64,000 bases of DNA from Pseudofrankia sp. DC12 (lineage in GTDB: Bacteria; Actinomycetota; Actinomycetes; Frankiales; Frankiaceae): contig NZ_KQ031391.1 in the NCBI RefSeq assembly GCF_000966285.1, forward strand, positions 2,515,208-2,579,207, in the 5' to 3' direction. Every line of letters starts with the position of its first letter. The first letter of the stretch is position 1. Of this stretch, positions 35,091 through 55,182 are shown piece by piece. A model generated the notes under the pieces. It was not told where the DNA came from, did not search any database, and saw only the letters and a list, made by a program, of their open reading frames with translations. The translations under genes were made by a program, and so were the position numbers.

Positions 35091-35729
35091 GGCCAGCCCG
35101 CCGTACGCTGCTACCCGCCCTTACCGGACATAGCACCAGCCATCCGCAGCCGCCGAGCGCGACCGAAGACCATCCGGCCGCTGCGCCCTTGGCGGTCGCT
35201 CGCGAGCCGCTATCCGCGTGGAGTTCCGTGCCTCGAACGGCACAGCAGCCGGGATCGCCGCCGACTCGGGCATGTAGGCACTGGCCTTGTTCTCCCGGCT
35301 CCGCGACTTCGAGCACCTCCTCGACAGATGAGGATCTTTAGCCTGCGTGGAGGATCATGCTCGTCTGGCGAGCCGTGCAGTGGTCACCACCGTCAGGCCG
35401 TCGGCGCTCAGCCGCATAGACGCTGCCGGACAGATGCGCCGACAGCGCTGGCGAGGGCCGCGCGGTGCTTTCGCAGCGCGCGGCGGTCCGCTCGCTCGGC
35501 GCAGACGTGTCCTCCACGGTTACCTGCGCGCCGAGCACCTGGGCATTCGCTTCGATCGCGCCCTGCTGCCCCTCCGATGTGACCAGAGTCAGATCCAGGC
35601 TTAGGAGCTGGTGGTCGGCAGGTTCTCAGGGTCGATGACCTTTCGCAGCTCTTGGAGGAGCCGCCACGCCCGTTCACGGGCCCGGGCACGGAACTTGCGA
35701 TGAAGTCTTCGTTTATGTTTTATGTGATC
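35091..35729. other. Degenerate intergenic sequence before the defence island
   Basis: About 640 bases without a gene that I can support. Protein-like remnants occur: on plus, RVEFRASNGTAAGIAADSGM, then TAG, then ALALFSRLRDFEHLLDR ending at 35331; on minus, DLTLVTSEGQQGAIEANAQV followed by a Ser/Arg-rich frame ending at 35338, without a start codon. These look like decayed gene ends. The last 30 bases before 35730 are AT-rich (TTTATGTTTTATGTG) and probably contain the promoter of the XRE gene. Confidence 0.4.
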
Positions 35730-36989
35730 ATGCCGCCGCCGCTTCGTACGATCGATCCTTCGCGATTGGAGCTGCGGCGCGCTGAGCTTGGGTTGACGCG
35801 TGCCGCGCTGGCCACGCGGGCTGGAGTCTCAGCCAGGATGATCTTTTTCTATGAGGAAGGTAGGCACACTCCGACGCCAGCGCGTCTTGAGCGGTTGGCG
35901 GCGGCCTTGGGTTGCTCCGTGGATGCGCTGACCGGGTCCGAACGCGGTCGCGAAACCCTGGTCGACCTGCGATACGCGGCGGGCCTGACCCTCGACAGGG
36001 CGGCCGGCCTTCTGCGCGACTTTCCGGCGGGACGCCAGCTGTGCGTGTCGGCGGTGAAGCTGTCTGCCTTGGAGAACGGCCGGCCCGTAACGGGGTCGCC
36101 ATGGCGGGATCCGGCATCCACGGGGCTGTTGGTCGAGCCGCTGGCCAAGGTGTATGGCGTGCCGATGCGGATGGTGCTGGATGCCTGGATGCGGACACGG
36201 CCCGATGAGCCGGCGCCGGCTCTCTCGGGCGCGAGGCCGCAGGCGGCGTCGGCCGCGGCGCTGGCCGCCTGGGAATCGCTGAACGAGCGCCAACAGATCT
36301 ATCTCGGCGAGATACTGCGGGATGACCGGATGGTCGAGACCGAGGTCTGGATGCGGCGGGTGCAGCGCCTGCCGGTACCGCGGCCGGCGGAGTGGCGCAG
36401 GCTGCCGCTGACGCTCAGATCTGCGCCATCGCTCGTCGGCTACACCCGCCTTCAGGAACGTCTGCGGGCGCGCGGGGTGCACGATCCTGGGGCCGGGCCA
36501 ACCGTGCATGCACTGGAGCGGCGGGGCCTGGTGAAGGTCAGCGAGGACACTGTGGTGCATCCGGCAGTCGGCGAGGTAGGCCGGGTCCTCGTGGAGGTCA
36601 CCCGGCGAGGTCGAGCGGCGGCGCGCGCCGGACTGAGCGAGCCGCGCGACCCCGACCCGCCAGCCCATCTGCTCTCGGAGTGGCTGTGGGGAGTGCTGGC
36701 CCGGGTCGCCAACGCCGGGCCTGACGGTCTTGGCGACGACGAGTTGGCAGGCAGGTCGTTGTTCTTCATCGGAGTGGGCTATCAGACGAAGGCCGGGGGG
36801 CGGCCGAGCCGGGGGTTCGTGGACTCCGTGCCGGTGATGGCACCGGGGGACACTCATGTCGCCGAGTACCGGTGGCGCCTGACGCAACTGGGCCGGCAGC
36901 ACATCCAGGAATACGCTGACGTGTACCGGGAACTCTACCCGCACGTTTCCGTCATCGGTCTCGACTCCCCACCCACCCCTGCGCCATAG
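35730..36989 (+). CDS. XRE-family regulator with long C-terminal domain, beside the pPIWI-RE genes (419 aa)
   Basis: Residues about 10-65 form a canonical XRE helix-turn-helix (LRRAELGLTRAALATRAGVS, ending LERLAAALGCSVDALTG). The rest is unrecognised, with LYHVS-like end replaced by ELYPHVSVIGLDSP and a helical RQQIYLGEILRDDRMVETEV-like segment (as NERQQIYLGEILRDDRM). Starts at ATG 35730, 35715 or 35700 are possible; no ribosome site stands out, and a TATGTG hexamer just before 35730 would suit a leaderless mRNA. It lies 72 bases upstream of the nuclease gene on the same strand and is a likely transcriptional controller of the defence module. Confidence 0.82.
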   Translation: MPPPLRTIDPSRLELRRAELGLTRAALATRAGVSARMIFFYEEGRHTPTPARLERLAAALGCSVDALTGSERGRETLVDLRYAAGLTLDRAAGLLRDFPAGRQLCVSAVKLSALENGRPVTGSPWRDPASTGLLVEPLAKVYGVPMRMVLDAWMRTRPDEPAPALSGARPQAASAAALAAWESLNERQQIYLGEILRDDRMVETEVWMRRVQRLPVPRPAEWRRLPLTLRSAPSLVGYTRLQERLRARGVHDPGAGPTVHALERRGLVKVSEDTVVHPAVGEVGRVLVEVTRRGRAAARAGLSEPRDPDPPAHLLSEWLWGVLARVANAGPDGLGDDELAGRSLFFIGVGYQTKAGGRPSRGFVDSVPVMAPGDTHVAEYRWRLTQLGRQHIQEYADVYRELYPHVSVIGLDSPPTPAP

Positions 36990-37061
36990 TTGCGCCATAA
37001 TCATGGGGATTGGTGCGCCCCTCTCTGGGGTTGTCGGAGGTAGGGCCTATCCTCTCGATCT

Positions 37062-38306
37062 GTGACGAGTTCCACGGACAACGACGTCCGGACCTTCGAC
37101 GGCACTAGGGTCCGCTACCTGGTGACCCGGGCGGCACTTCGCGCGGCGACCACGATGACCAACCCGACGCTTTCACCGAGGCAACGGCTCGCGGCACTCA
37201 TGGAATGCCATGGCACGCTGTTGGCGGCCCGGGGCCCAGGGGATCCGCTGTCGTTCGGCGATTTCCGCCGAGCGCTGAAGAATGACCTGGCCAGGCTGCT
37301 GCCCGCCGGGATCGACTCTCCCGACCTCGAGGGTCTGCCAGTCGTCGATGGTGAGGACCGCGTCGCCGAGGACGCCTTCGACCTCGCCTTCGAGCAGCGG
37401 GTACTCCTCAAGGCCCTCGACAAGCCCGGCAACTCTGCACTGCTTATCAATGACCAGGAACTCCAGGATGAGATCGACCAGGAGACGGCTTTCGAAATCC
37501 TGTACAAGGGCGGCGAGCAGGCTGGCTACGTGGCCGGCCGGTCAGATCTGATCCGGTACCCGGCCGGGCCGGTCAGCGACCTGTGTGAACTCAGGCTGCC
37601 GCCCCGGGTCGTCGACCTCTACCAGGACATCCCCTACAACTCCGTTTACCAGGTCCATTGGTTCCCGTGCCCTGCCTGCCGCTGGCCGATGCGCGTCGCC
37701 ATCCGGAGAAGCGCTGGCAGCCGGGTAGGCACGGCCCGCTGCTGGCACGGCGCCCATGCCGAGATGGGCGCCTCCTATCTGTTCCCACTGCCCGCGGACG
37801 GCGGTGTGCCCGAACTCGTGCCCGAGGCGTCGCCTCGGCGGCCGGGCTTGCGGGAGTCCGTGCTGTTCCCGTCGATCTCGGAGGTCCCTCGTGCGCTGCC
37901 AGCTGCTGGATACAAGGCTGTCGCACGCGGGATCTGGAGGTACACCACCATCCCTGGCCTTCCCGAGCTGGCGCTGTATGACCGGCTGTCCGAACGCGGG
38001 CTGACGGTGGAGCTGTGGCCCGCGCTGGACGCCTATGACCTGCGGGTCGAGGCCGGTCCCCGGAAGGGCCGGAAGGAGACCTTCAAGGTCGACGTCAAGG
38101 ACTACACCTCGGCGATGACCCTGGGGAAGCTCATCGACGCCCAGGAGGGCGACCGGGGCGGTGCCGGCTGGCTGGTCGTGCCGGACTACCGGGCCGGTCA
38201 GCTGCCGCTGCTGTCCGGGGTCTGCGCGAAGTGGGACATGAAGGTGGCCACCGCGTCCGAGTTCGGCGCCATGGTCTGCGCGAAGGCCGGGGTGAGCTGG
38301 GCGTGA
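37062..38306 (+). CDS. pPIWI-RE module PD-(D/E)xK nuclease (pPIWI_RE_Y type, 414 aa)
   Basis: The C-terminal part carries a restriction-endonuclease fold signature: LWPALDAYDLRVEAGP with the acidic residue, then FKVDVKDYTSAMTLGKLI with DxK (about residues 320-350). A treble-clef or zinc-ribbon-like segment in the middle has PCPAC (202 and 205) and ARCWHGAH (about 224-231). N-terminal half is helical. Known pPIWI-RE loci encode such a nuclease with a DinG-type helicase and a PIWI protein, predicted to act as RNA- or DNA-guided restriction against invading replicons. GTG start at 37062; a TATCCT hexamer 8 bases upstream suggests a leaderless transcript. Its stop overlaps the helicase start (GTGA). 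Confidence 0.85.
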   Translation: MTSSTDNDVRTFDGTRVRYLVTRAALRAATTMTNPTLSPRQRLAALMECHGTLLAARGPGDPLSFGDFRRALKNDLARLLPAGIDSPDLEGLPVVDGEDRVAEDAFDLAFEQRVLLKALDKPGNSALLINDQELQDEIDQETAFEILYKGGEQAGYVAGRSDLIRYPAGPVSDLCELRLPPRVVDLYQDIPYNSVYQVHWFPCPACRWPMRVAIRRSAGSRVGTARCWHGAHAEMGASYLFPLPADGGVPELVPEASPRRPGLRESVLFPSISEVPRALPAAGYKAVARGIWRYTTIPGLPELALYDRLSERGLTVELWPALDAYDLRVEAGPRKGRKETFKVDVKDYTSAMTLGKLIDAQEGDRGGAGWLVVPDYRAGQLPLLSGVCAKWDMKVATASEFGAMVCAKAGVSWA

Positions 38307-41300
38307 ACGACAAGCCGATCAGGGAAATCACGATCCTCGCGTCGCTCGCGCTCGCCGCCCACTACTTCCCGATCAGCATCGAGGGCGACGACCGGGTCGC
38401 CGCGCCGTTCAACCAGGCGTCGTTCCTGCTCACCGGGAAGTACCGGGCCTGGTCACGCTGGACGGCGCTTCCCCACGACGAGAAGCAACGGATCGCACTG
38501 GTGTGCCGGTCCGCCCCGGCCGACCTGGCGGACCCGCGGTTCTTCGCCACCGCGGCGCGAACCCTGCTGGCCCGGCCTCCGGAGACGGGCGCCGACGACG
38601 TGCCCACGCCGCTGGCGCAGTTCGACCTCGTCGGGGAGAACCCGTACACGGCGCAGGCCGCGTTCCCGCGCGTCGGCGGCGACCTGCTCGGCTACGTGGA
38701 TCGGCAGACCGCCCGCTTCCGCCGGCCCAGCGCCCGGCCCAAGCCGCCCGCGTTCGCCGGTCCCGGGGCCTGGACCACCCGGGAGATCTTCGTCAAGGGC
38801 GCCGGGCAGGTCCAGGGCCGGCTGACGATCCCGGCCTACGCCCAGTTCACCGAGCCGCTCGGCCACGACCAGCTCCCCACGGTCACCACCGCGCCCTACC
38901 AGGAGACCCTGAGGATCCCGACCGGCGAACTACTCGCCCTGGCCGAACAGCTCGACCGCCGGCCGCCCCTGGCGGACGCGCCCTACCTGCACGCGACGCT
39001 GACGCAGCTGTTCGGCGCGCTAAACACTAACGACGCTGTCTCGCCCCAGGAGGCACTGATCCTGACCGCCGGCGGCCTGGAGATCTTCCACGCGCCGACC
39101 GGCACCGGCAAGAGCATCCTGGTCCGGGTGATGGCCTCCTGGTTCGCCATCAACCACCGCCGGGTTGCCATCGTCCTGCCAGACATCAAGGCCTGTCTGA
39201 ACCTGACCTGGGACGTCCGCGGCGACCTCGCGCACCTGCGCCAGCTGGGCGTCCTCGACCATCCCGCGACCTGCGCGCACCTGATGTCCTCGTCCGGGAT
39301 GCACGACAAGGCGCTCAAGCACGCCTCCCTGCTCACCGAGGATCCCGGCGCCCCGGGCGATTGGGGTGAACACGCCGAACGCGACGTGGATCCGCTCGCC
39401 TATGGCTGCGCGCAGAAGACCTTTCTCCAAACCAGCGGCGGCGACTACCCTCCCGGCGAGGAGCCGTGCCTGTCGCTGCGCGGCAAGGGCACGGAGAGCA
39501 CGGCCTGCCCATGGATTCCGACCTGCGGCAAGTTCACCCCCGTCTACGATGCCTGCGCCGCGGACGTCGTCATCCTGAACCACCACATGTTCCTCCAGGG
39601 CAGCGTCAAGATCGGGGTGACCCTCGACGGCCACTCCGTCAGGGGCATGAAGGCCGCGGAGCTGACGCTGCGTGCCTGCGAGGCCGTCCTCGTCGACGAA
39701 GTCGACCTGTTCCAGTCCACCGCCGTCGGCAACTGCGCCAGCGATGTCGTGCTGCACTCTCGCCGCCACTGGTCCGCGGCCCCTCAGGAGATCGACACGG
39801 ATGCGAAGCGGCTCCCGCTCGATGACGAGAACAACCTGCTGGCCGCCATCAGCCACACCCGGCTCATGGCCGAGTCCCTCCTGCTGGGTATCTGCCGGAA
39901 CGCGCTCCGCCTGCATGCCACCGAGGACGAACGAGCCCAGACCCGGATCCCCGACCGAACCAGCACCCGCTGGCATCTGGCCCAGGCCCGCGACCGCGCA
40001 CTGATCCGGCTGCTCTGGTCCGACGCCCCCGTCGACGACGACCAGCCGATCCCGGGCGACCTGTACGACCGGCTCAACGCCCTGATGCCCAGCCGCTACC
40101 GCCGCGACCCGGCGGCCGGCCAGGGCCCATTGCCCGAGGCCGACTGGCCCGCGGCGCGGCGCGCGCTCGAAGCACTCGTCACGCCCCGCGGCGAAGACCT
40201 CCTCGACGAGGTGAAACTCGATCTCCACGCCATCCTCGAGGACACGGTCAAAGACGTTCACCGGCGCACCCAGGCGATCAATCTCCTTACCCTGCGCACC
40301 GTCATGCTCGAACTGGACGACGCGCTCGCCCTGCTCCAGGACAAGGCCCACGGCTATCGGTCCATCGGCCTGCGCTCGGCCCAGCGGATCCTCGACAACC
40401 TGCACCAGAGCGCCGTCTCGTCGGTCCTCCCGCAGGGGATGCTCGGCTACCCGATCACCGGCTACCGGGTGACCGGGCTTGAGGACACCGAGAAGAACGC
40501 CCAGCTGGCCGCCCAGACCCTCACCGGTGACCCGCACACCTTCGCCGCGGAACTCGGCGGCATCGTCTCCCTGCTCCTCGCCGGGCTGGAACGGCCGGTC
40601 CTGGGCCTCTCAGCGACCGCCTACTTCCCCCAGGCCGTGCGTGAGCACCTCCACGCTCCGGTCCGCTGGTGGATGACCGACGCCCAGGCCAAGTCGATCC
40701 GGGCGCGCAAGCACCGCGTCACTTACGGCGACGACCACCCGCTAGCCGGACAGGCCATCAGGATTTCCGGCACCCACAAGACGCAGAAGAAGGAAGCCGC
40801 CCTCGAACTCGGCGCCAAGCTGTACGACGAGCACATCCACGCCGAACTGGAGCGTACGACCCGCAAGGACCCGGACCGCGCCCACGTCCTAGTCGTCGCC
40901 AACTCCTACGAGCAGTGCGCCCAGCTCGCGACCGGCATCACCCGGGCGGGCACGTTCGACGGAGGCCTTTGCGTGGCCGTCCGCGACGCCGACCCACGCA
41001 ACGCCCACCAGGACCTGCCGCGAGCCAGCCTCGCCAAACGCCTAACGCCGGAGCAGTTCGAGGACTTTCCCCGTCACGGCAAGATCTTGGTCGTACCGCT
41101 CCAGCGCATCGCCCGCGGTCTGAACATCGTTAAGGGCACTCGGTCTGCGGTCCGCTCCGTCTATCTATGCGTACGCCCCCTCGCGCTCGTCGGCGAGCCT
41201 GACGAGATGTACGGCAGCATCAACGCCGCGGGCCTGCGCGCCCTGCCCCCGGGCGGCAGCGACGACCCCGCCAAGGCCCTCGCCGAGGCACGCTCAGCGG

Positions 41301-41623
41301 CCCGGGAACGGCTCACGGTCCTCCTGCGCACCGCGCCACAGTTCACCGCCATGCACAAGTCACTGCAAGAAGAGATCGTCGCCGGCGTCATCGTCGACCT
41401 CATCCAGCTCGCCGGCCGCGCCCGCCGCGGCGGCACCGAAGCGGTCCTGCACCTCGTCGACTACGCCTTCCACGACGACACGTGGAGCTCCGACCTGGAG
41501 ACCATCCTCGGCCGCATCCACTCCCAGTGGGACCCCGAGGTTCGCCAACACATGAACGACCTGTACGGCGAGGCGCTGCGTGCGTTCCTCTCCTACGCCG
41601 GTATCGACCCTGACCAGCCGTGA
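38303..41623 (+). CDS. pPIWI-RE module DinG-like superfamily 2 helicase (1106 aa)
   Basis: Helicase of the XPD/DinG class. Walker A is HAPTGTGKSILVRV (about 262-275); DEAH-box-like motif II is VLVDEVDLFQS (about 461-470); ILNHHMFLQGS precedes it as in DinG. Four Cys between motifs I and II (GCAQKTF, PCLSL, ACPWIPTC; about 368-407) match the 4Fe-4S cluster of this class. C-terminal VVPLQRIARGLNIV and LIQLAGRARRGG are motifs V and VI. The GTG at 38303 overlaps the nuclease stop, so the upstream frame from 38231 is rejected. It would unwind duplex DNA or R-loops for the PIWI protein and nuclease. An intact motif set implies an active ATPase. Confidence 0.92.
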   Translation: MNDKPIREITILASLALAAHYFPISIEGDDRVAAPFNQASFLLTGKYRAWSRWTALPHDEKQRIALVCRSAPADLADPRFFATAARTLLARPPETGADDVPTPLAQFDLVGENPYTAQAAFPRVGGDLLGYVDRQTARFRRPSARPKPPAFAGPGAWTTREIFVKGAGQVQGRLTIPAYAQFTEPLGHDQLPTVTTAPYQETLRIPTGELLALAEQLDRRPPLADAPYLHATLTQLFGALNTNDAVSPQEALILTAGGLEIFHAPTGTGKSILVRVMASWFAINHRRVAIVLPDIKACLNLTWDVRGDLAHLRQLGVLDHPATCAHLMSSSGMHDKALKHASLLTEDPGAPGDWGEHAERDVDPLAYGCAQKTFLQTSGGDYPPGEEPCLSLRGKGTESTACPWIPTCGKFTPVYDACAADVVILNHHMFLQGSVKIGVTLDGHSVRGMKAAELTLRACEAVLVDEVDLFQSTAVGNCASDVVLHSRRHWSAAPQEIDTDAKRLPLDDENNLLAAISHTRLMAESLLLGICRNALRLHATEDERAQTRIPDRTSTRWHLAQARDRALIRLLWSDAPVDDDQPIPGDLYDRLNALMPSRYRRDPAAGQGPLPEADWPAARRALEALVTPRGEDLLDEVKLDLHAILEDTVKDVHRRTQAINLLTLRTVMLELDDALALLQDKAHGYRSIGLRSAQRILDNLHQSAVSSVLPQGMLGYPITGYRVTGLEDTEKNAQLAAQTLTGDPHTFAAELGGIVSLLLAGLERPVLGLSATAYFPQAVREHLHAPVRWWMTDAQAKSIRARKHRVTYGDDHPLAGQAIRISGTHKTQKKEAALELGAKLYDEHIHAELERTTRKDPDRAHVLVVANSYEQCAQLATGITRAGTFDGGLCVAVRDADPRNAHQDLPRASLAKRLTPEQFEDFPRHGKILVVPLQRIARGLNIVKGTRSAVRSVYLCVRPLALVGEPDEMYGSINAAGLRALPPGGSDDPAKALAEARSAARERLTVLLRTAPQFTAMHKSLQEEIVAGVIVDLIQLAGRARRGGTEAVLHLVDYAFHDDTWSSDLETILGRIHSQWDPEVRQHMNDLYGEALRAFLSYAGIDPDQP

Positions 41624-41644
41624 AATGGCGGAGGAGAACAACCC

Positions 41645-44440
41645 ATGGACCCGCGCGAGCCGGGCAAGTACCTCAACACCCTCGCCTTCCGCTGCACCCC
41701 TGACCTCGTAGGCGACGCCGCTGTCCACGTCCGTCATCTGGACTCCGAGACCCGGAAGCTCTGGGAGGACTTCGACCGGGACTGCAAGAAGGCGTACAGG
41801 AACGACGACGCCCAAGCCCCTTACAGCATCGCCACCACGGTGCTGTCCGTCATGACCGGCGGATACGTCTACTTCGACCCAAGCTGGAACGAACCGTTCC
41901 TCGCCTCCCGGGAGCCGCTCGACGACCAGATGCTCTGCCGCGCCTTCACCCTGACCCAAGGGCTCGCCCAAGGCCAGAAGGTCGACGCCATCGATCTGAA
42001 GAGGCCCCCTGAGCTCGCCCGCCGACTCGCGGAACTTCCGGAACGTGCCCTTCTCCTCGCGGACCACCTCAGGCCCACTGCCGGCGCCCAGCCCAAAGCC
42101 CCTAGCTGGGTCTATAAGACGGTCGGCTGGGACCTCGCGCGGCGCCTGGCCGCCGTTCCCTGGAAAATCTCCGACAGCAGGACTGTCTCCTTGCGACCCG
42201 ACACGGCCGGAGGGCTGGTCGCTCTTGACGACCCCTGGGACAACGACCAGCGGGAAAGTCGGTTCGCCATCTCCCGCACGGCGCTCGTCCTCAAGACCCT
42301 TCCCAACCTCATCAGCCCGGTCCTGCTCCTGACCTCACACGTCACCCGCATCTCACCCTCATTGATCTTCAGCCGGACCGTGTTCGCCCGGCAGCCCGGC
42401 GAGGGCCATCCGGTGCTGCGGGTAAGACTCGACGGCCAACGCGGCGTCCGTACCGTCAACCGCCTCGCGCTGCAGGCCCTCGGCCGCCTCCGGATGGACT
42501 ACTCCATCCTCACCTCAATCGACGACAGGTCCCGCCGAGAGCGGGCGCTCCGCTCCGCGGCCGTAGCCGCAGGCACCAGGGTCGAGTGGCCCAAGACGCC
42601 GCCTGGCCAGATCTGGCCCATCCGGGCGGACAACACCGGCAAGTTCCCGATCGGAACCGGTGTCGGCATGCACCACCTCCGCCTGCTTCACGATCACGTC
42701 CACGCAGTGTTCCAGGACGCGGCCGAACCGCTCGAAATGCGCGAGGTCGCCATGCGGCTCCCGAGCCGACCAACCGATCCCGAGAGGAACCTTTCCGAGG
42801 AGGAACGAGCCCGGCGCAAGGCGAACGGCATGAGCACGCGCGGAAACGCGTTCCCCTCGGCCGAGTCCGTCGCGGCCTCCATCGAAACGACCGGCCACGA
42901 CAAACTGCGCCTCGTCTGCCTGTGGTACCGGGACGAGACCCGACTGCGCATGCTCAGCACCCTCCGCCAGGCCTTCCAGCTACCGGCTGCTGGCCTCGAC
43001 CCCCACGACGGCGAGGAAGTCCCCCTCCACGGCGACAAGATCACGGCGGTCTTCCACGAAGCGGCAGACTTCCTCGCCCCGGGCCGGCCCGAACACCGCG
43101 AAGAGGCATGGGCGCGACTCCGCCCGTCACTGCCCGCCGACGGTGGTGTCCTCACCGCTGCCTGGTGCGAGACCGAGATCCCCGTGGCCGACGCCGACGA
43201 GGACGCCGAAGCCAAGAACGATCGCGACGACCTGGACGCCAAGCACCACACCCGGCAGATCCTCGCCAGCCACGGCGTGCCCAGTCAGTACCTCAGGGGC
43301 ACCGACGACCGGGGCGTGGTCATCCCTGAGGCGAAAGACCATCCGGCCGAGGCCGCGCTCCTCGACCTGTACCGCTCGCTGGGCGTCATCGACGCCCGCA
43401 TCGCCAACGCGCTCCGACCCGCCAAATCTGGCCACTTCCGCGCCGACCGAGTCGCCCACGTCGGCGTTCACGTCCGGCGGCAGAACAAGCGCCCCGGCGA
43501 GACCAGCCGGCCCAGGATCGTCATCACCGCCGCGGCGATCATCCCGCCGGCCACGGACGACGGCACCTGGACGATGCTCGGCTGGAGTTCCAGCCGTCCC
43601 GGCTGGCAGCTCTACCAGCGCGCACAGACCAGCTTCCACAGCACTCGATACCCACGAAGCACCGAAGCCGCGAAGACCGACCGGCAGCGCTGGGACGAGG
43701 CAGCCGAACTCGTCGAAAAGGCTCTCGGCGACCTCGCCGACGAACTCGACGGCACCCCCTACATCGTCACGGTCGACCAGCAGGCAACCCGGCGGATGTG
43801 GAGCGGACTGCAGAACTCCCACCAGGGCGAGAAGCAACCCGGCGGCGGCAAGAGCCGACACTGGCTCCCCGGCGCCACTCTGAGTCTGGAGGACCGCCCG
43901 CAAGCCGTCGTTCGCGTCGGCACTGCCGACGACGAGGTACCGCAACCCGTCAGCGTCACGCACATCAAGAGGAACGGCGAGTCCAAGAACCAGCAGACCG
44001 CGACCACACTCTTCAAGATCGCAACGGACTTCGGTACACCCGTCTGGATCCTGAGCAATGTCCCTCGCAACTACGACGGCGGAACCGGCGGCGGTCCCCG
44101 ACGCCCCGGCGCTACGCGCACCCGATGGGACGCCCAGCGCTCCGTCAGCTCGGACGACAAGAAGGAACGCCGCAGGAGCGAGATCCCGCTGCCCTGGTAC
44201 TCCATGACCGCGACCGAGATCTACCCGGTCTCCTTCACCCTCGACGTCCCCGAGGAAACGCTCGCCATCGCGACCGCGAGCCTGTGCCACCAGACCCAGT
44301 TCTGGTCCGATCGCGCCCGTTACCCGGTTCCACTCCACGCCGCGAAGCAGATGGACCTCGACCATCCCCAGTACCGCCGCTCCGCACAGGCAGAGAACAG
44401 CGACCTCGCCAGGTCAGACACCGACCCCGGCACGGACTGA
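41645..44440 (+). CDS. pPIWI-RE family PIWI/RNase H-fold protein (931 aa)
   Basis: Length and layout fit the pPIWI-RE family (an N-terminal DUF3962-like region, a MID-like X region and a C-terminal RNase H-fold PIWI domain). In the C-terminal domain I see YIVTVDQQATRRMWSGLQN (about 706), PQAVVRVGTADDEVPQP (about 750), TPVWILSNVPRNYDGG (about 798) and WYSMTATEIYPVSF (about 851), the order expected for this family. The ATG at 41645 has GGAGGAG 11 bases upstream, 21 bases after the helicase stop. The protein probably binds a guide nucleic acid and target; whether its RNase H residues are all catalytic cannot be settled by eye. Confidence 0.87.
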   Translation: MDPREPGKYLNTLAFRCTPDLVGDAAVHVRHLDSETRKLWEDFDRDCKKAYRNDDAQAPYSIATTVLSVMTGGYVYFDPSWNEPFLASREPLDDQMLCRAFTLTQGLAQGQKVDAIDLKRPPELARRLAELPERALLLADHLRPTAGAQPKAPSWVYKTVGWDLARRLAAVPWKISDSRTVSLRPDTAGGLVALDDPWDNDQRESRFAISRTALVLKTLPNLISPVLLLTSHVTRISPSLIFSRTVFARQPGEGHPVLRVRLDGQRGVRTVNRLALQALGRLRMDYSILTSIDDRSRRERALRSAAVAAGTRVEWPKTPPGQIWPIRADNTGKFPIGTGVGMHHLRLLHDHVHAVFQDAAEPLEMREVAMRLPSRPTDPERNLSEEERARRKANGMSTRGNAFPSAESVAASIETTGHDKLRLVCLWYRDETRLRMLSTLRQAFQLPAAGLDPHDGEEVPLHGDKITAVFHEAADFLAPGRPEHREEAWARLRPSLPADGGVLTAAWCETEIPVADADEDAEAKNDRDDLDAKHHTRQILASHGVPSQYLRGTDDRGVVIPEAKDHPAEAALLDLYRSLGVIDARIANALRPAKSGHFRADRVAHVGVHVRRQNKRPGETSRPRIVITAAAIIPPATDDGTWTMLGWSSSRPGWQLYQRAQTSFHSTRYPRSTEAAKTDRQRWDEAAELVEKALGDLADELDGTPYIVTVDQQATRRMWSGLQNSHQGEKQPGGGKSRHWLPGATLSLEDRPQAVVRVGTADDEVPQPVSVTHIKRNGESKNQQTATTLFKIATDFGTPVWILSNVPRNYDGGTGGGPRRPGATRTRWDAQRSVSSDDKKERRRSEIPLPWYSMTATEIYPVSFTLDVPEETLAIATASLCHQTQFWSDRARYPVPLHAAKQMDLDHPQYRRSAQAENSDLARSDTDPGTD

Positions 44441-44686
44441 GCTGACGCGCGGCGCCGGCGCGAGGCCACCGAGTGGCTTGCCGCGGACCGCGACCGCATT
44501 GCTGGGGGCGGTGCCGTGCCGTGGTCGCGGTCGTCGGCGGCTGCGCGAGGTCGGTCTCGCCAGTAGTCGGTGGGCATTGCGTTTCATTCAAACAACACCT
44601 TGCGTACCGATGTTCTCACTGTCGCGACTGTTCCGGCGCTAGGCTTGGTCCTTCTTGGACGGGATGCGAGTCGTGGGGGACGGCAC

Positions 44687-47600
44687 GTGGACGGACGGCT
44701 GCGCGAGCTGGCGACGGCATCACCGAACTTCGGACGGCTGTTCGGGCTGAACCGGTTGCTGTCGCTGTGCGGCGCGCTCGCCGAGACGACGGTGTTCACG
44801 AACCCGAACGCCTCGCTCATGCACTCGGGCCAGTTCGGGGAGATCCTGGCCGAGGTGCTCGTGACCGCGACCGGCACCAGGGTCGGTGGTGACCGCCAGG
44901 TCGATCGGCTCAACGCGCTGGCCAGGACGGGCTTGTTGCATGCCGACAAGCGTCAGCTGTTCGACCAGATCCGGGTGGACCGCAATCTGGCGGTGCACGA
45001 GTTCCTGTTCGACCGGTCGCGGGCGTTGACCGCGGTCGAGATCTGTTACCAGCTCGGGCTGTGGTATCACGACGCGATCGCGGGCCGGAGCACGGTGCCT
45101 GAGTTCGTGCCGCCGACGGACCCAGCCGACAGCGTGGAGATCAGCGATCCGGCCGAGCTGGCCGAACTGCGGGGCACCCTAGGCGCCAAGCGGGCGGCGC
45201 TGACCGAGGCCAGGACCCGGCTGCGAGACGCTGCAGACGAGGTCGAAGCCGAGCGCCGAGCGCGGACAGCGGCTGAGAACCTCATCGCGAGTGCGGACAC
45301 CATCCGCCGCGAGTTGCAGGACCAGCTCGCGCACCTGACCGCGCAGATCGACGAGCTGCGCGCGGTGCAACGCGCCGAGTACGAATCGGCCCGCCGGGAG
45401 CCGAAGAGGGTTGACCCCGCCAGCCGGGACGCGATCATCCACCGGGCGGCCCGGCCGGCGCCGCTCAACGAGCTGCAGGCTCGCGGACGCATAGACGCGA
45501 TGCTCCGCCAGGCGGGCTGGGTGATCCAGGACCACCGCGACCTCAACCCGCGGGCCGCGCGCGGGGTGATCGTCCGCGAGTTCCCGCTGGCGACCGGCCG
45601 GGCCGACTACGTCATGTTCGTCGACCAGCGGATCGTCGGCGTGCTGGAGGCCAAGCGCGAGGGTGACCACCTCTCCACCGCGGTCGAGCAGAACGACCGC
45701 TACTCCTCCGGTGTGAACCGGGACTACCGGCTGGCCGTCTGGGACGAACGGGAGCCGTTCGCATTCCGGTACGCGACGACGGGCACCGAGACGTATTTCG
45801 TAAACCGGCTCGACCCCGACGCCCGCTCACGTGAGGTCTTCCACTTTCATCGGCCGGAGACCGTCGCCGAGTGGATGCGGCGTGCCGACGAGAACCCCGA
45901 CGTCCCGACCCTGCGGGCAGCGCTGCGCCGGTTGCCGCCGCTGGAGCGCAACGGGCTACGCGAGGCCCAGTTCGACGCGATCACCAACCTGGAGGAGTCG
46001 CTCGCCCACGACCGGCCGAAGGCTCTGATCCAGATGGCGACGGGCGCAGGCAAGACCTTCACCGCCGTCGCGCAGAGCTACCGGCTACTCAAGTACGCCG
46101 AGGCCAGCCGGGTGCTCTTCCTCGTCGACCGCAACAACCTCGGCAAGCAGGCCCTGGACGAGTTTCGCCGCTACGTCACCCCGGACGACGGCCGGAAGCT
46201 CTCCGATCTCTACGGCATTGATCGGCTCGGCCGGACCGGGCTGCAGGACACCTCGTCGGTGGCCATCTGCACGATCCAACGGATGTACCGCCTGCTCCAA
46301 GGCGAGGCGCCGTTCGACGAAGATGATGACGCTGGCGACGACTTCGACGCCGACGCTCCAGTCGAGGTCGCCTACAACCCGGACGTGCCGATCGAGTCCT
46401 TCGACCTGATCATCATCGACGAGTGCCACCGGTCCATCTACGGCCTGTGGAGGGCCGTGCTCGACTACTTCGACGCCCATCTCGTCGGTCTCACCGCCAC
46501 CCCGACCCTGCAAGCCCTCGGCTTCTTCGACCGCAACCTGGTCTCCGAGTACACCTACCCCCAAGCCGTCGCCGATGGCGTCAACGTCGACTTCGACGTC
46601 GTCCGGATTCACAACACGCTGCGCGAACAGGGATCGGCGACGATCGAGGAGGGCACCACCGTCCAGGTCCGTGACCGTGCCACCCGCGCGAAGCGCTACG
46701 AACAGCTCGACGACGACTTCACCTACTCCACCCGCCAGATCGGCCGTTCCGTCGTCGCCGTCGACGAGATCCGCTCGGTCCTCGTCGCGTTCCGCGACAA
46801 CTGGAAGCACTGGTTCCCAGACCGGGCAGTCCTCCCCAAGACCCTGATCTTCGCGGTCGGCGAGGACCACGCCGAGGACGTCCTCGCCCAGGTCAAGGAG
46901 GTCTTCGGCAAGGGCGACGGATTTGCCAAGAAGATCACCTACAAGAGTCGGCAGGCCGGAGACGACCCCGACCAGCTCATCCGCGAGATGCGCACCTCGC
47001 CCGACCTCCGGGTCGCCGTCACTGTCGACATGATCGCTACCGGGACGGACATCAAGGCGCTCGAATGTGTCCTGTTCTTGCGTGAGGTCCGCAGCGCCGT
47101 CCTTTTCGAGCAGATGAAGGGCCGCGGTGCTCGCACCATCGACCCGACCGAACTCGCTGAAGCCACCCCCGGCGCCACCGAGATCACCCGCAAGACCCGG
47201 TTCGTCCTCCTCGACGCCGTCGGCGTCACGGACTCCCCGCTTGTCGACGCCAAGCCCCTCGCTCCCGCCGGCCCGCGACAGATCGCCTTGTCGAAGCTGC
47301 TCGACAAGGCCGGGACGGGATCGATCAACGCCGAGGAAGCCGAGATCCTCGCCGGCCGGCTCGCCCGGCTCAACCAGCAGCTCACCGACGACGAACGCGA
47401 CCTGCTCACCCACGCCGCCGACGGACAGACCCTCTCCTCCATCGCCGGGGCGATTGTCCGCGCCGTCGACCCCGACCGGCAGGAAGAAGCCACCCTCGCC
47501 GGAGGCAAGGCTGCCGCCCACCGACTCGTCACCGACGCGGTCGCCCCGCTCACCACCCACCCCGAACTGCGCCGCCAGATCCTTGAGATCCGCCGCGCCA

Positions 47601-48223
47601 AGGACTACGTCTACGACGAGGCCACCGCCGTCCAGGTCACCGAGATCCGGGAGATCCCCCGCCAGGAACGGGCCCGTGAGCAGATCGGCCGCTGGAGCAA
47701 GCTCCTCACTGACGAACGCGACCGCATCACGGCGATCAGCCTCGCCCTCGCCCGTCCTCGGTCCAGCTCACCGGCCGACGCCTACGCCTCGCTCAAGGAA
47801 CTTGCGGCCTCCATCGAACGGCCCCCGCTGCACTGGACACCGATGACCCTGTGGGCCTACTACGAGGACCTGGGCGTCGGCGTCACTTTGGGTGGCCGCG
47901 ACGCGGGCGTCCCCGACCTCATCTCCCTCATCAGGTATGAGTTGGGAGTGGACGACGAACTCCGCCCCTACCGGGACACCGTCGAGGAGCGCTACCAGGG
48001 CTGGCTCCTCCGACAGCACCATGCAGGCGCCACCTTCACCCCTGACCAGCTGCGCTGGCTCGACGCCATCCGCGACGTCGTCTCCACCGACATCGGCATC
48101 ACCCCCCGCGAGTTCCGACGAGAACCGTTCCGCGCCTGGGGCGAAGGCCGCGGCTTCCGCGCCGCCTTCCCCAACCGCGACGTCCGCTCGCTGCTGGACG
48201 AGCTGAACCGGGAACTGGCTTGA
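44687..48223 (+). CDS. hsdR: Type I restriction enzyme R subunit (HsdR, 1178 aa)
   Basis: Motor and nuclease subunit of a type I restriction-modification complex. N-terminal DUF4145-like helical region (FGLNRLLSLCGALAE), coiled coil (about 165-245), then the nuclease centre with GRADYVMFVDQRIVGVLEAK (D...ExK, about 304-320). SF2 helicase motifs: ATGAGKT (about 450), DECHRS (about 577), GLTATPT (about 600) and MKGRGART (about 810). GTG at 44687 with GGGGGA seven bases upstream is preferred over an upstream in-frame ATG at 44570, whose extra 39 residues look noncoding. The stop overlaps hsdS (TTGA). All key residues are present, so it is probably active. The 246 bases before it contain no other gene. 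Confidence 0.95.
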   Translation: MDGRLRELATASPNFGRLFGLNRLLSLCGALAETTVFTNPNASLMHSGQFGEILAEVLVTATGTRVGGDRQVDRLNALARTGLLHADKRQLFDQIRVDRNLAVHEFLFDRSRALTAVEICYQLGLWYHDAIAGRSTVPEFVPPTDPADSVEISDPAELAELRGTLGAKRAALTEARTRLRDAADEVEAERRARTAAENLIASADTIRRELQDQLAHLTAQIDELRAVQRAEYESARREPKRVDPASRDAIIHRAARPAPLNELQARGRIDAMLRQAGWVIQDHRDLNPRAARGVIVREFPLATGRADYVMFVDQRIVGVLEAKREGDHLSTAVEQNDRYSSGVNRDYRLAVWDEREPFAFRYATTGTETYFVNRLDPDARSREVFHFHRPETVAEWMRRADENPDVPTLRAALRRLPPLERNGLREAQFDAITNLEESLAHDRPKALIQMATGAGKTFTAVAQSYRLLKYAEASRVLFLVDRNNLGKQALDEFRRYVTPDDGRKLSDLYGIDRLGRTGLQDTSSVAICTIQRMYRLLQGEAPFDEDDDAGDDFDADAPVEVAYNPDVPIESFDLIIIDECHRSIYGLWRAVLDYFDAHLVGLTATPTLQALGFFDRNLVSEYTYPQAVADGVNVDFDVVRIHNTLREQGSATIEEGTTVQVRDRATRAKRYEQLDDDFTYSTRQIGRSVVAVDEIRSVLVAFRDNWKHWFPDRAVLPKTLIFAVGEDHAEDVLAQVKEVFGKGDGFAKKITYKSRQAGDDPDQLIREMRTSPDLRVAVTVDMIATGTDIKALECVLFLREVRSAVLFEQMKGRGARTIDPTELAEATPGATEITRKTRFVLLDAVGVTDSPLVDAKPLAPAGPRQIALSKLLDKAGTGSINAEEAEILAGRLARLNQQLTDDERDLLTHAADGQTLSSIAGAIVRAVDPDRQEEATLAGGKAAAHRLVTDAVAPLTTHPELRRQILEIRRAKDYVYDEATAVQVTEIREIPRQERAREQIGRWSKLLTDERDRITAISLALARPRSSSPADAYASLKELAASIERPPLHWTPMTLWAYYEDLGVGVTLGGRDAGVPDLISLIRYELGVDDELRPYRDTVEERYQGWLLRQHHAGATFTPDQLRWLDAIRDVVSTDIGITPREFRREPFRAWGEGRGFRAAFPNRDVRSLLDELNRELA

Positions 48224-49695
48224 GCAAGCCGAACGCCTCGGACCTGCCGAATGGCTGGGCATGGGCAACACTCGACGAGCTCGCAGCGGCCGAGCCGCGC
48301 GCGATCACGGACGGCCCGTTTGGCTCAAACCTCGCATCACGCCACTACACCTCAACCGGCGCACGCGTCATCCGCCTGCAAAATATCGGCGACGGAAGGT
48401 TCGTTGACGGGAAAGCATACATAAGTCTCGATCATTTTAACACGCTCCGCGCCCACGAGGTCCGCGAGGGCGATGTGCTCGTGGCGTCACTCGGTGAGGC
48501 CTTGCCACGGGCTTGTCTCACGCCCGCAGGCATCGAGCCCGCGATCGTCAAAGCCGACTGCATCCGAGTCAGGCCACACCCCGCGATCAATCCAAAGTGG
48601 CTCGTCTACACGCTGAACGCCCCAGAGACTCGCGCATACGCAGGTGCGCGCATTCGGGGAGTCGGCAGACCGCGTCTAGGGCTTGGCGAGCTTAGGAAAG
48701 TGCCACTCCCGGTACCTCCGCTTGCAGAGCAGCACCGCATCGTCGACGCCCTCGAAGACCACCTCTCCCGCCTCGACGCGGCCCAGCGGGCAGCGGAACA
48801 GGCACTCGCGAGGACAGCCGCTCTCCGCGAGAGAATAACGTCGATCACGTTCGGCATCGACGTGCCTGATGACCGCCCACGCGCACGGATTCTTGAGCCG
48901 GCTGGCACCGACGATGGCCTTCTCGCCAGGATCCCCGCGACTTGGAGGTGGCGCCGGCTCGATGAGATCGCAGACGTGGTCGGGGGCATCACCAAGGACG
49001 CGAAGAAGCAGGCGGACCCGCTGATCCCGGAGGTTCCCTACCTGCGCGTTGCCAATGTTCAACGCGGCAGGCTCGACCTTTCGCATGTCGCCCTGGTACG
49101 GGTTCCAGCGAAGAAGGCTGACCAACTCGCGCTGCAGCCGGGCGACGTGCTTCTCAATGAGGGTGGCGACCGCAACAAACTCGGGCGCGGCTGGATCTGG
49201 GAGGGGCAGATCCCGGGAGCGATCCACCAGAACCACGTCTTCCGCGCCCGGCCACGCCCGGACAGCATGCACCCAAAACTGCTGTCCTGGTACGCAAACA
49301 GCATGGCTCACTGGTTTGAGGTCAATGGAAAACAGAGCGTGAACCTCGCGTCGATCAGCCTGTCGAAAATCAAGAAGCTACCCGTGCCCGTTCCACCGCC
49401 CGACGAGCAGCAGGCCATCGTCGACCGTATCGAGACGCAACTCTCCGCGCTTGACGCCGCGGCCCAAACCGCGCAGGCAGCGCTACTGAAGGCGACGGCT
49501 CTTCGGCGATCGCTGCTCGCCGCCGCCTTTTCTGGGCGGCTCGTGTCGCAGGATCCGGCCGACGAACCGGCCGCCGCGCTTCTCGACCGTCTGGCAAGCC
49601 CGACCCCAACTCCTCGTCCCAGTCGCAGACTAAAGAGCGCCACTGTCGGTCGCAGGGCGACATCGATCCCCGTCCCCCAGGAGCTTCCGCTATGA
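48220..49695 (+). CDS. hsdS: Type I restriction-modification specificity subunit (HsdS, 491 aa)
   Basis: DNA-recognition subunit with two target-recognition domains separated by helical spacers: TRD1 (about 10-165), spacer with LPVPPLAEQHRIVDALEDHL, TRD2 (about 225-400), spacer with KLPVPVPPPDEQQAIVDRIE. Each TRD opens with a WxW-type segment (GWAWATLDEL; TWRWRRLDEI). TTG start at 48220 overlapping the hsdR stop. The TRD1 coding stretch (about 48370-48450) is noticeably richer in A+T than its surroundings, as expected for recognition domains exchanged by recombination. The target sequence cannot be predicted. Confidence 0.95.
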   Translation: MSKPNASDLPNGWAWATLDELAAAEPRAITDGPFGSNLASRHYTSTGARVIRLQNIGDGRFVDGKAYISLDHFNTLRAHEVREGDVLVASLGEALPRACLTPAGIEPAIVKADCIRVRPHPAINPKWLVYTLNAPETRAYAGARIRGVGRPRLGLGELRKVPLPVPPLAEQHRIVDALEDHLSRLDAAQRAAEQALARTAALRERITSITFGIDVPDDRPRARILEPAGTDDGLLARIPATWRWRRLDEIADVVGGITKDAKKQADPLIPEVPYLRVANVQRGRLDLSHVALVRVPAKKADQLALQPGDVLLNEGGDRNKLGRGWIWEGQIPGAIHQNHVFRARPRPDSMHPKLLSWYANSMAHWFEVNGKQSVNLASISLSKIKKLPVPVPPPDEQQAIVDRIETQLSALDAAAQTAQAALLKATALRRSLLAAAFSGRLVSQDPADEPAAALLDRLASPTPTPRPSRRLKSATVGRRATSIPVPQELPL

Positions 49696-51263
49696 CCACC
49701 GTTGCCCCTGCCCAGGCGCATGCGCACACGAACACGCTGGTCGCGAAGCTGTGGAATTACTGCAATGTGCTGCGCGACGACGGCCTATCTACGATCGAGT
49801 ACGTCGAGCAACTGTCGTACCTACTGTTCCTGAAGATGGCCGACGAGATCGCCGGAGACCCGTTTTTCGAGGAGGACGCCCGCGAAATCGTGCCGGCCGT
49901 CTACAACTGGCAGTCACTCGTTCGGCTGACCGCGGACGCTCTGGAGACGCACTACAAGCGGACGCTCGAAGCGCTCGGCAAAGGCAGTGGGACGACGCTC
50001 AGCACGATCTTCGCGGGCGCCCAATGCCGGATCACCAAGCCGGCGTTGTTGGAAAAGCTGGTGAAGAATCTGATCGGTGAGTTCACCTGGACGGTCGAGG
50101 GCTCCGACCTCAAGGGTGACGCCTACGAGGGCCTGCTAGCCAAGGGCGCTGAGGACACCAAGACCGGCGCCGGCCAGTACTTCACGCCGCGGGCCCTGAT
50201 CGATGCCATGGTCGAGGTCACCCAGCCCCGCCCGGACGACACGATCAGCGACCCGGCCTGCGGGACCGGTGGCTTCCTCATCGCCGCGCACCGCTACATC
50301 CGCGAACATCACCTACGCACCCTCAGCCGAGATGAGCGCCTTGCGTTCGGCACGGAGAGGAACGTCTGGGGAACCGAGTTGGTCGCTGGCACGGCCCGGC
50401 TCGCCGCGATGAACATGCTGCTTCACGGCATCGGCGACGCGGACGGCCCATCGCTGATCACCGTCGACGACGCCCTTGCTGCTAGGCCCACCAAGCACGC
50501 CTCATTGGTGTTGGCGAACCCGCCGTTCGGCCGCAAGTCGTCGATCACGGTCATCGGCAACGACGGCACCGCCGAGAACGACGACATCGCCTACGAGCGC
50601 GAGGACTTCCGCGTCTCGACGACGAACAAGCAACTCAACTTCCTCCAGCACATTATGTCGCTACTGGAGATGGACGGCCGCGCCGCTGTAGTCCTACCCG
50701 ACAACGTCCTCTTCGAGGGCGGCGCCGGTGAGAAGATCCGACGCCGCCTGCTCGACGAGTTCGACCTGCACACGATCCTGCGCCTGCCGACTGGCATCTT
50801 CTACGCTGGCGGAGTCAAGGCCAACGTGCTCTTCTTCGACAAGAAGGCCCCCCGGGTCGACGGACAGCCGAACACGACTGTCGTCTGGGTCTACGACTTC
50901 CGCACAGCCAAGCACTTCACCCTCCGCCAGCGCCCCCTACGCCGCGCCGACCTCGACGAGTTCATCGCTGCCTACCTGCCCGGCAAAGATCGTCGGGAGC
51001 GGGTCGAGTCCGAACGGTTCCGCCCATTCACTCACGCCGAGCTGATCGCCCGCGACAAGGTCAACCTCGACATCACCTGGCTGAAGGACCCCGCCCTCGA
51101 CGACGCCGACAGCCTCCTACCACCCGGCGTCATCGCCCGCGAAATCGTCGAAGACCTCCAGTCCGCCCTCGCAGAGTTCGCCGCCATCGCGCAGGCTCTC
51201 GACGACGAGCCGGCCGAAGCACCAACGGCGTTCGTTCCGGATCCTCCCTTCGCGATCGACTAG
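49692..51263 (+). CDS. hsdM: Type I restriction-modification DNA methyltransferase subunit (HsdM, 523 aa)
   Basis: N6-adenine methyltransferase. N-terminal HsdM_N helical domain (TLVAKLWNYCNVLRDDGLS, LSYLLFLKMADE), AGQYFTPRALIDAMVE, SAM-binding DPACGTGGFL (about 187-196) and catalytic NPPFG (about 276-280), an N6-adenine signature. ATG overlaps the hsdS stop (ATGA). With hsdS it forms the modification enzyme; with hsdR, the restriction complex. The order R-S-M is less common than R-M-S. No frame damage, so the system appears complete. Confidence 0.96.
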   Translation: MTTVAPAQAHAHTNTLVAKLWNYCNVLRDDGLSTIEYVEQLSYLLFLKMADEIAGDPFFEEDAREIVPAVYNWQSLVRLTADALETHYKRTLEALGKGSGTTLSTIFAGAQCRITKPALLEKLVKNLIGEFTWTVEGSDLKGDAYEGLLAKGAEDTKTGAGQYFTPRALIDAMVEVTQPRPDDTISDPACGTGGFLIAAHRYIREHHLRTLSRDERLAFGTERNVWGTELVAGTARLAAMNMLLHGIGDADGPSLITVDDALAARPTKHASLVLANPPFGRKSSITVIGNDGTAENDDIAYEREDFRVSTTNKQLNFLQHIMSLLEMDGRAAVVLPDNVLFEGGAGEKIRRRLLDEFDLHTILRLPTGIFYAGGVKANVLFFDKKAPRVDGQPNTTVVWVYDFRTAKHFTLRQRPLRRADLDEFIAAYLPGKDRRERVESERFRPFTHAELIARDKVNLDITWLKDPALDDADSLLPPGVIAREIVEDLQSALAEFAAIAQALDDEPAEAPTAFVPDPPFAID

Positions 51264-53496: not shown

Positions 53497-53591
53497 CTGG
53501 CGGCCGGCGCCGCCCACCGCTCCAGCGCCGCGATCAACCAGCACCGGCCTTCCCGCTCTCCTCAAGCCCCCTCGTCATGGCTGGAGCCCCG

Positions 53592-54275: not shown

Positions 54276-54537
54276 ACCCGAGGGCCCCACGCGCGACTGC
54301 GGCCACGGACACCCGCCCGGTGGCCTGGCCGTGTCCGCGACGAGGGCCGAGCGCCGCTGGCTGAGGACAGGTCATATCCCCCGGCACCGCGCCGTCCCCG
54401 GCCGGGTTCGCAACCCACCGAGTCCGCCGAGGTCCCGAGGCCGCCACCACCCGCCCCCCGCGGGGCATCCACCTGCACGCGACCGCGGCCACCACCTGTT
54501 CTCCCCGCGCGTCCGTCAACCTCGGAAAGGAACATCC

Positions 54538-55037: not shown

Positions 55038-55067
55038 TGTTAGGCGCCGCGCTGGATGTCCATGATG

Positions 55068-55088
55068 GCGTCGTTGACGGTGGGCATG
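55068..55088 (+). repeat. Inner repeat near the left end of the TniA-like transposon
   Basis: GCGTCGTT, three bases, GGTGGGCA, then TG; found inverted at 58404-58424 with 17 of 21 positions equal. Such inner repeats are usual transposase-binding sites in Tn7/Tn5053-class elements. The left copy lies 30 bases and the right copy 6 bases from the terminus. Confidence 0.6.
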
Positions 55089-55101
55089 ATCTTGGATGAG
55101 G

Positions 55102-55134: not shown

Positions 55135-55182
55135 GGTGCTCGGGTTGTCGTCGTGGTGCTCAGCTTGTCGCCGCCTTTGTGA

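What the first reader, a model, noticed from the sequence alone, without database searches (positions are those of the whole stretch)
37062..44440. Complete pPIWI-RE defence module
Nuclease (DxK), DinG-like Fe-S helicase and PIWI/RNase H-fold protein are consecutive with GTGA overlap or short spacing, the arrangement described computationally for pPIWI-RE systems. All key helicase and nuclease motifs are present, so it looks intact. Experimental knowledge of this class is thin, which makes an intact actinobacterial copy valuable.
Basis: partly seen in the sequence, partly recalled or inferred. Interest (0 to 1): 0.85.

Follow-up and report, generated by a model that had tools for sequence, protein, structure and literature searches.

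The report
pPIWI-RE defence operon with own regulator
This is an intact copy of a predicted but barely tested bacterial defence system in which an Argonaute-like protein, a helicase and a DNA-cutting enzyme are made together, and it comes with a fourth conserved gene, a DNA-binding protein with a matching control site, that the published three-gene description does not include.

Summary
REase (37062-38306), DinG-type helicase (38303-41623, GTGA overlap) and pPIWI-RE protein (41645-44440) are consecutive, intact and matched by family profiles, in the published order (PMC3702460). Such loci are not rare: 85 of 295 genomes of one genus of the same class match the PIWI domain. (1) The module here has four genes. 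The HTH gene upstream (35730-36989) belongs to a family beside 19 of 100 compared loci with all three genes; a PD-(D/E)XK nuclease (PADLOC's PprPDDEXK) takes the slot in 40, never both. Its promoter carries a dyad, exact in 12 of 16 loci and one base off here: very probably an autoregulatory operator. (2) The PIWI domain lacks the first catalytic Asp, as do all 96 sequences with a residue there, while MID residues and the REase active site are kept. Best reading: an autoregulated restriction system in which a non-cutting PIWI senses, DinG opens the duplex and the REase cuts. Defence, guide and target are untested. The adjacent type I R-M operon is a neighbour, not part.

The parts
35695..35723 (+). 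Promoter/operator: -35-like TTGCGA 35695-35700, dyad TGAAGTCTTCG 35701-35711 (one mismatch from the family dyad TGAAG-T-CTTCA), -10-like TTTTAT 35718-35723, 6 nt before the ATG (probably leaderless)
   Evidence: Dyad conserved in relatives; the hexamers are my reading, and the strict promoter scan found none
35730..36989 (+). Fourth gene: XRE-type HTH plus C-terminal winged-helix-like domain (ORF listed from TTG 35652; ATG 35730 preferred); predicted autoregulator
   Evidence: PF01381 51 bits; 72 and 74% identical in L013 and L014; family beside 19 of 100 loci with all three genes. The winged-helix reading is mine: no family covers the C-terminal half
37062..38306 (+). pPIWI-RE-associated REase: helical Y region with R160, zinc ribbon C203/C206/C227, catalytic E302, D326, D344-x-K346
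   Evidence: PF18154 94 bits; residue conservation
38303..41623 (+). DinG-type Fe-S helicase: Walker A G268-K269, Cys 368/388/401/407, DEVD 464-467, Q1034-G1037-R1038 (numbered from codon 2)
   Evidence: PprDinG 314 bits; conservation in 14 aligned sequences, window included
41645..44440 (+). pPIWI-RE protein: X domain 41684-42817, MID match 43142-43396, RNase H/PIWI domain 43457-44371
   Evidence: PF13111, PF18157, PF13032 all above cut-off; R757, E858 kept, H609 at the first catalytic Asp position
44570..51263 (+). Neighbour, not part of the module: type I R-M operon HsdR 44570-48223, HsdS 48220-49695, HsdM 49692-51263
   Evidence: an HsdM-like match above 300 bits in only 6 of 100 loci

Best explanation
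An autoregulated four-gene pPIWI-RE (Ppr) restriction operon. The XRE/winged-helix protein binds the dyad in its own promoter and holds the operon low until invasion or another signal relieves it. The pPIWI-RE protein binds an oligonucleotide (guide or RNA-DNA hybrid end) in its MID pocket and recognises hybrid or complementary foreign nucleic acid without cutting it. The DinG helicase unwinds or translocates on the hybrid/R-loop and delivers DNA to the REase, which makes the cut. Shown here: family identities, operon layout, intact REase and helicase motifs, missing first PIWI Asp, conserved fourth gene and dyad. Inferred: repression, guide loading, R-loop targeting, division of labour, and defence as the purpose.
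For: Profiles above curated cut-offs. Published order and spacing. REase E302/D326/D344/K346 intact in 62 of 62 loci without the extra PD-(D/E)XK nuclease, window included. In the 14 helicases aligned, G268-K269, four Cys, D464-E465, D467, Q1034 and R1038 are invariant and G1037 at least 90%. PIWI position 609 is Asp in 0 of the 96 sequences with a residue there, while D531, K533, Q548 in the MID part are kept in 96, 96 and 95 of 97. HTH family in 17 of 17 rows of the window's helicase clade and once, separately, in L018. Of 27 matches in 295 genomes the 17 strongest all lie at a pPIWI-RE locus. Dyad exact in 12 of 16 promoters, one mismatch in window and L121; arms change together (TGAAG/CTTCA, TGAAC/GTTCA, GGAAC/GTTCC); 12 exact dyads in 408 kb of 21 partner-bearing loci against 1 in 1556 kb of 81 others (patterns chosen after seeing the promoters). 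Patchy presence and plasmid carriage fit a transferred defence system.
Against: No defence phenotype, guide or target was tested, here or in the parts of papers read. In the HTH-bearing group H609 and D711 are both kept in 16 of 18, so an altered rather than dead PIWI active site is possible. PsPIWI-RE, the only member with biochemistry that my searches returned, cuts with its own PIWI domain, and its knockout was more sensitive to ciprofloxacin, which its authors link to DNA replication (PMC10991935). The C-terminal half of the fourth protein is the constant part, also found without the XRE half, so it may be more than a repressor. The window's own dyad has one mismatch; L115 and L139 have none. 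The A7 model used was built from triad-linked seeds, and 10 of its 27 matches are not at a triad.
Confidence: 0.6

Rival explanations
1. Guide-free hybrid surveillance: the PIWI protein loads no short guide but recognises RNA-DNA hybrid structures (R-loops, plasmid or phage replication intermediates) directly, and the helicase/REase destroys the DNA.
For: This is close to the 2013 proposal; no obvious guide-making gene lies among the four genes; PsPIWI-RE cleaved only when guide and target were of different kinds, RNA with DNA.
Against: MID residues D531, K533, Q548 are kept in 95-96 of 97 sequences, as expected for holding a strand end.
Confidence: 0.25
2. A replication or chromosome-maintenance factor rather than defence.
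For: Knockout of piwi-re in P. stutzeri raised ciprofloxacin sensitivity (abstract).
Against: Patchy presence (1 of 8 genomes of the window's genus, own included), plasmid carriage, flanking transposase/recombinase genes and neighbouring R-M operon.
Confidence: 0.1
3. A weapon of mobile elements: carried by plasmids or integrated elements mainly to exclude rival plasmids.
For: Helicase relatives on 14 Streptomyces plasmids, 7 typed mobilizable; one genome has copies with identical helicases near both ends of its contig (L141, L142).
Against: The window copy lies on a 6.88-Mb contig and 38 of the 80 places fetched lie on contigs above 1 Mb; no test of plasmid exclusion.
Confidence: 0.25

Closest known systems
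pPIWI-RE three-gene system (Burroughs, Iyer, Aravind 2013, PMC3702460; abstract, section 6 and passages read)
   Same: Same three families, strict order, overlap or short spacing, Y region with Arg, zinc ribbon, Cys-rich DinG, X-MID-RNase H protein
   Different: Separate, conserved XRE/winged-helix gene with its own operator; the parts read describe HTH domains only as fusions to the REase
PADLOC Ppr models (PprRE, PprDinG, PprPIWI, PprPDDEXK)
   Same: Three of the four named components match
   Different: PprPDDEXK is absent here; no Ppr model matched the HTH protein
PsPIWI-RE of Pseudomonas stutzeri (PMC10991935; abstract and first part of Results read)
   Same: PIWI-RE family; R and E residues
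   Different: Catalytically active PIWI (D525, D610); first Asp missing here
Inactive long-B and short pAgos with partner nucleases (PMC6299218, passages read)
   Same: Non-cutting PIWI with a separate nuclease in the operon
   Different: Different N-terminal domain, helicase type and nuclease family (family differences partly recalled)

Membership tests
pPIWI-RE three-gene system | Order REase, DinG, pPIWI-RE on one strand with overlap or close spacing | tested here: met
   GTGA overlap, 21 nt gap
pPIWI-RE three-gene system | pPIWI-RE protein with X, MID and RNase H domains | tested here: met
   three Pfam families above cut-off, in order
pPIWI-RE three-gene system | Signature Arg and Glu of the RNase H domain | tested here: met
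   R757 and E858 conserved (each 83 of 97); assigned by conservation and order, no structure
pPIWI-RE three-gene system | REase fold with Y region Arg and zinc ribbon | tested here: met
   PF18154; R160; C203, C206, C227; E302, D326, D344, K346
pPIWI-RE three-gene system | DinG-type helicase with Cys-rich region | tested here: met
   PprDinG; four Cys in 14 of 14
pPIWI-RE three-gene system | Large helical insert before the second helicase repeat | tested here: inconclusive
   Only the length between DEVD and motif VI was seen; no structure
pPIWI-RE three-gene system | RNase H catalytic residues (kept only in a subset of the family, not required) | tested here: not met
   H609 in place of the first Asp; D711 present
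pPIWI-RE three-gene system | Nucleic-acid-dependent restriction of foreign DNA | not testable with these tools
   Needs expression and challenge experiments
PADLOC Ppr with PprPDDEXK | Extra PD-(D/E)XK nuclease upstream of the REase | tested here: not met
   the slot holds the HTH gene; 0 loci hold both
Type I R-M system (neighbour) | hsdR, hsdS, hsdM together | tested here: met
   counted as separate

The most novel reading that the evidence does not exclude
The winged-helix partner is a working subunit, not only a repressor: it gives the PIWI-helicase-REase complex a DNA-reading part (self/foreign or target choice), and in other branches a Cas4-like nuclease fills the same slot, so pPIWI-RE systems would be four-part machines with an exchangeable fourth module. 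Hints: the winged-helix half is the constant part; no XRE half was found with it in L018, L135 and L143; in L018 and L143 it follows the PIWI gene instead of heading the operon; the tree needs at least two joinings to the triad.
Probability: 0.22. Interest if true: 0.75.

Novelty: new variant of a known kind. Interest (0 to 1): 0.5.

Why it matters
pPIWI-RE systems were predicted in 2013, and my searches returned one experimental paper with PIWI-RE in its title, on a single PIWI-RE protein with an active PIWI domain. The present analysis turns the window's copy into a testable unit: where the operon begins, what probably represses it, which subunit should cut and which should not. A mapped operator suggests how to switch the system on in the laboratory, a practical point, since a repressed operon would look silent in a heterologous host.

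Tried and rejected
Structure prediction of the PIWI protein from a two-row alignment gave mean pLDDT 30.6 and of the HTH protein from three rows 41.0; no fold search was run on such models, so the active-site assignment rests on alignment alone. Sequence search of solved structures found no convincing relative of PIWI, helicase or REase (the S11 hits at E 0.0025 or worse I take as chance). Two viral-contig scans (PIWI alignment, helicase) and the phage collection (PIWI) gave no relative.

Type I R-M as part of the module: rejected. HsdM lies within 10 kb in 3 of 8 genomes, far above density (P about 3e-6), but only 6 of 100 loci have an HsdM match above 300 bits in the stretch held, the closest relative L013 has none in its 22.7 kb, and L014's is a distantly related operon on the other strand.

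Nuclease replacement: REase active-site change occurs only with the extra PD-(D/E)XK nuclease (12 of 40 against 0 of 62, one of the 12 an alignment gap), but the tree needs only 3 changes and the paired test has no power. Kept as a hint.

A strict scan of 35300-37200 found no promoter-like and no terminator-like site. The shared reading MKSS before several HTH starts was first taken as protein; spacing of -29, -30 and -31 and symmetric changes point to a DNA element.

Dropped rows: the PIWI alignment (97 rows) left out L014, L039, L044, L100, L143, L144, L151 (broken or partial) and had no match in L020, L045, L047; the helicase tree (95 rows) left out L014, L017, L020, L044, L046, L047, L048. 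Of the 105 places listed I fetched 80: fragments were passed over, four were already held (L015, L016, L018, L019), and two full-length ones (G693, G696) were not fetched. Near-copies were not removed (for example L039-L043, L141/L142).
Full report
1. The observation. REase 37062-38306 (414 aa) ends in a TGA that overlaps the helicase start GTG 38303; the helicase frame ends at 41623; 21 nt later, after a purine-rich GGAGGAGAA, the 931-aa ORF runs 41645-44440. Pfam gives pPIWI_RE_REase (94.4 bits) for the first, nothing for the second, and pPIWI_RE_X, MID_pPIWI_RE and RNaseH_pPIWI_RE, all above cut-off and in order, for the third. PADLOC gives pPIWI_RE_REase (100.3 bits) and PprRE (44.5), PprDinG (313.6) and PprPIWI (317.5). 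NCBIfam has no match to any of the three at E 0.01. It is the only RNaseH_pPIWI_RE match in the host genome. This is not chance.

2. Residues. All counts include the window. REase: R160 of the helical Y region, zinc-ribbon C203, C206, C227, and E302, D326, D344, K346 are kept; C203 and C206 never vary in 102 sequences. Helicase: G268-K269, four Cys (368, 388, 401, 407), D464-E465, D467, Q1034 and R1038 are invariant in the 14 sequences aligned, G1037 in at least 90% (numbering from codon 2). PIWI: the family's Arg and Glu are most probably R757 and E858, each kept in 83 of 97 sequences. D531, K533 and Q548, inside the MID match, are kept in 96, 96 and 95 of 97. The position that should hold the first catalytic Asp (h-G-h-D strand; D525 in PsPIWI-RE, PMC10991935) is H609 here and His, Trp, Tyr or Lys in all 96 sequences with a residue; none has Asp. 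D711, in place of D610, is Asp in 39 of 97, and in 17 of 18 of the HTH-bearing group. So this PIWI is probably a binder, not a cutter; because H609 and D711 are both kept in 16 of 18 of that group, an altered metal site cannot be excluded. No usable model could be made, so this rests on alignment.

3. How common. RNaseH_pPIWI_RE matches 4 of 97 genomes (host included), 1 of 8 in the host's genus, the host itself; the REase family 7 of 396 genomes of the phylum, host included; RNaseH_pPIWI_RE 85 of 295 genomes of the genus of G051, some matches being fragments. Of 80 places fetched from that genus (of 105 listed), 76 have matches to all three genes; the other four are a short contig (L100), a PIWI-only locus (L143) and two fragments (L144, L151). 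The helicase has relatives on 14 Streptomyces plasmids. Relatives with about 60% identical PIWI proteins were found in a Saccharothrix (L013) and a Streptacidiphilus (L014; helicase and PIWI frames broken in that assembly).

4. A fourth gene. In L013 and L014 the gene upstream of the REase is a 72 and 74% identical homologue of the window's HTH gene, better conserved than REase or PIWI. A profile of its C-terminal half was run over 107 loci (window, 10 fetched loci, 16 plasmid loci, 80 regions), of which 100 have matches to all three triad genes, not all of them intact. In those 100, the slot beside the REase is the HTH family in 19, a PD-(D/E)XK nuclease in 40 (PF12705 in the three tested; PADLOC's PprPDDEXK in the two tested), a divergently transcribed PF08939-like gene in 9, and none of these in 32. 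No locus has both HTH family and nuclease. The HTH family is upstream of the REase on the same strand in 18 of 19; in L018 it follows the PIWI gene with a 4-nt overlap, and in L143 (PIWI-only locus) it also follows the PIWI gene. On the helicase tree (95 rows, FastTree) 17 HTH-family rows form one fully supported clade with the window; L018, a long branch, lies elsewhere; starred branches force at least two joinings. In a whole-genome scan of 295 genomes there were 27 matches; the 17 strongest (E below 1e-57) all lie at pPIWI-RE loci (16 with all three genes, one PIWI-only), the 10 weaker do not. That model was built from triad-linked seeds, so the split in score is partly built in. Before it, a search with the window sequence alone matched 2 of 296 genomes, the host and G269, and the G269 match was at its triad; a Nocardia plasmid has a homologue with no triad in the 18.6 kb seen. 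No Pfam or PADLOC family covers the window's C-terminal half, and NCBIfam matches only the XRE part.

5. An operator. Before the HTH start (ATG 35730) the window reads TTGCGA-TGAAGTCTTCG-TTTATG-TTTTAT-GTGATC-ATG (35695 on). The dyad TGAAG-T-CTTCA is exact and at -29 or -30 in L013, L014, L133, L116, L117 and L119; L118, L111, L110 and L122 have TGAAC-T-GTTCA at -29; L124 and L129 have GGAAC-T-GTTCC at -31 (L122 read by eye). That is 12 of 16 loci with an assigned start; window and L121 are one base off; L115 and L139 have none; L105, L135, L018, L143 and L045 were not counted. The arms change together, as a site for a symmetric dimer would. Chance of a perfect dyad at -29/-30 in a shuffled upstream of L013 is 0.0025. 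Exact dyads: 12 in 408 kb of 21 partner-bearing loci, 1 in 1556 kb of 81 other triad loci; the patterns were taken from the promoters themselves. The dyad sits between a -35-like and a -10-like hexamer, so binding should block transcription, and the transcript is probably leaderless; these hexamers are my reading (strict scan negative). I conclude that the HTH protein most probably represses its own operon.

6. Surroundings. Downstream on the same strand is a type I R-M operon; upstream a DDE transposase (33655-34977), further downstream a 260-aa protein with a Recombinase domain and a Mu-type transposase with an AAA ATPase. G+C of 34-52 kb is 65-70.5%, against 70-77% in 1-26 and 52-64 kb and 68-71% in 26-34 kb. 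This fits a transferred defence island. HsdM within 10 kb is far above density in 3 of 8 genomes, but the HsdM proteins are distantly related and the orientations differ.

7. Mechanism. The 2013 proposal (PMC3702460) has the PIWI protein sense RNA-DNA hybrids, DinG act on R-loops and the REase cut. The present data sharpen it for this branch: REase active site intact in 62 of 62 loci without the second nuclease, first PIWI Asp absent in 96 of 96, MID residues kept. Repression by the HTH protein would explain how a potentially toxic nuclease operon is held down. Guide type, target, trigger and phenotype are unknown.

8. Known and new. The triad is known since 2013 and modelled in PADLOC. Searches of the held library for pPIWI-RE, pPIWI, PIWI-RE and the PADLOC/Pfam names returned one paper on the system and one on a single PIWI-RE protein; 13 papers hold PIWI-RE as a whole word, of which I saw text in four (PMC3702460, PMC10991935; passages in PMC10573157 and PMC12564509) and only the listing of the rest. 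None of the text read describes a separate HTH gene or operator. Preprints and most subscription journals are not in that library. A 2025 DinG paper reports a DinG protein with an added Argonaute-like RNase H domain (PMC11981726, passage), which fits a physical helicase-PIWI partnership.

Noticed in passing
L015, L016, L021 and 37 further loci: A PD-(D/E)XK nuclease with ten Cys columns invariant in 40 of 40 (PADLOC PprPDDEXK in the two tested, weak Cas4 matches in one) heads 40 of 100 loci; the REase active site is altered only in such loci (12 of 40).
   Followed up: partly
L033 7191-7682, L034 7209-7757, L037 7161-7748, L044 6512-7087 and 5 more loci: A divergently transcribed Bles03-like gene (PF08939 in the one tested; annotated as phosphothreonine lyase domain in four plasmids) lies directly upstream of the REase in one helicase clade.
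   Followed up: partly
L141 and L142 (genome G641): Triads with identical helicases lie about 23 kb from both ends of one 9.12-Mb contig, as in long terminal inverted repeats.
   Followed up: no
G051 C1 7024565-7025083 (L003): A second, partial RNaseH_pPIWI_RE match about 13 kb from that genome's triad.
   Followed up: no
L045 8410-9636: A Nocardia plasmid carries a homologue of the winged-helix partner with no triad in the stretch seen, so the domain may also serve elsewhere.
   Followed up: partly
window 53493-57613: Recombinase-domain protein, AAA ATPase and Mu-type transposase in a row, a possible transposon next to the defence island.
   Followed up: no
L105 15946-17594: The XRE half and the winged-helix half lie in different ORFs, so the fourth gene seems split or frameshifted there.
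   Followed up: no
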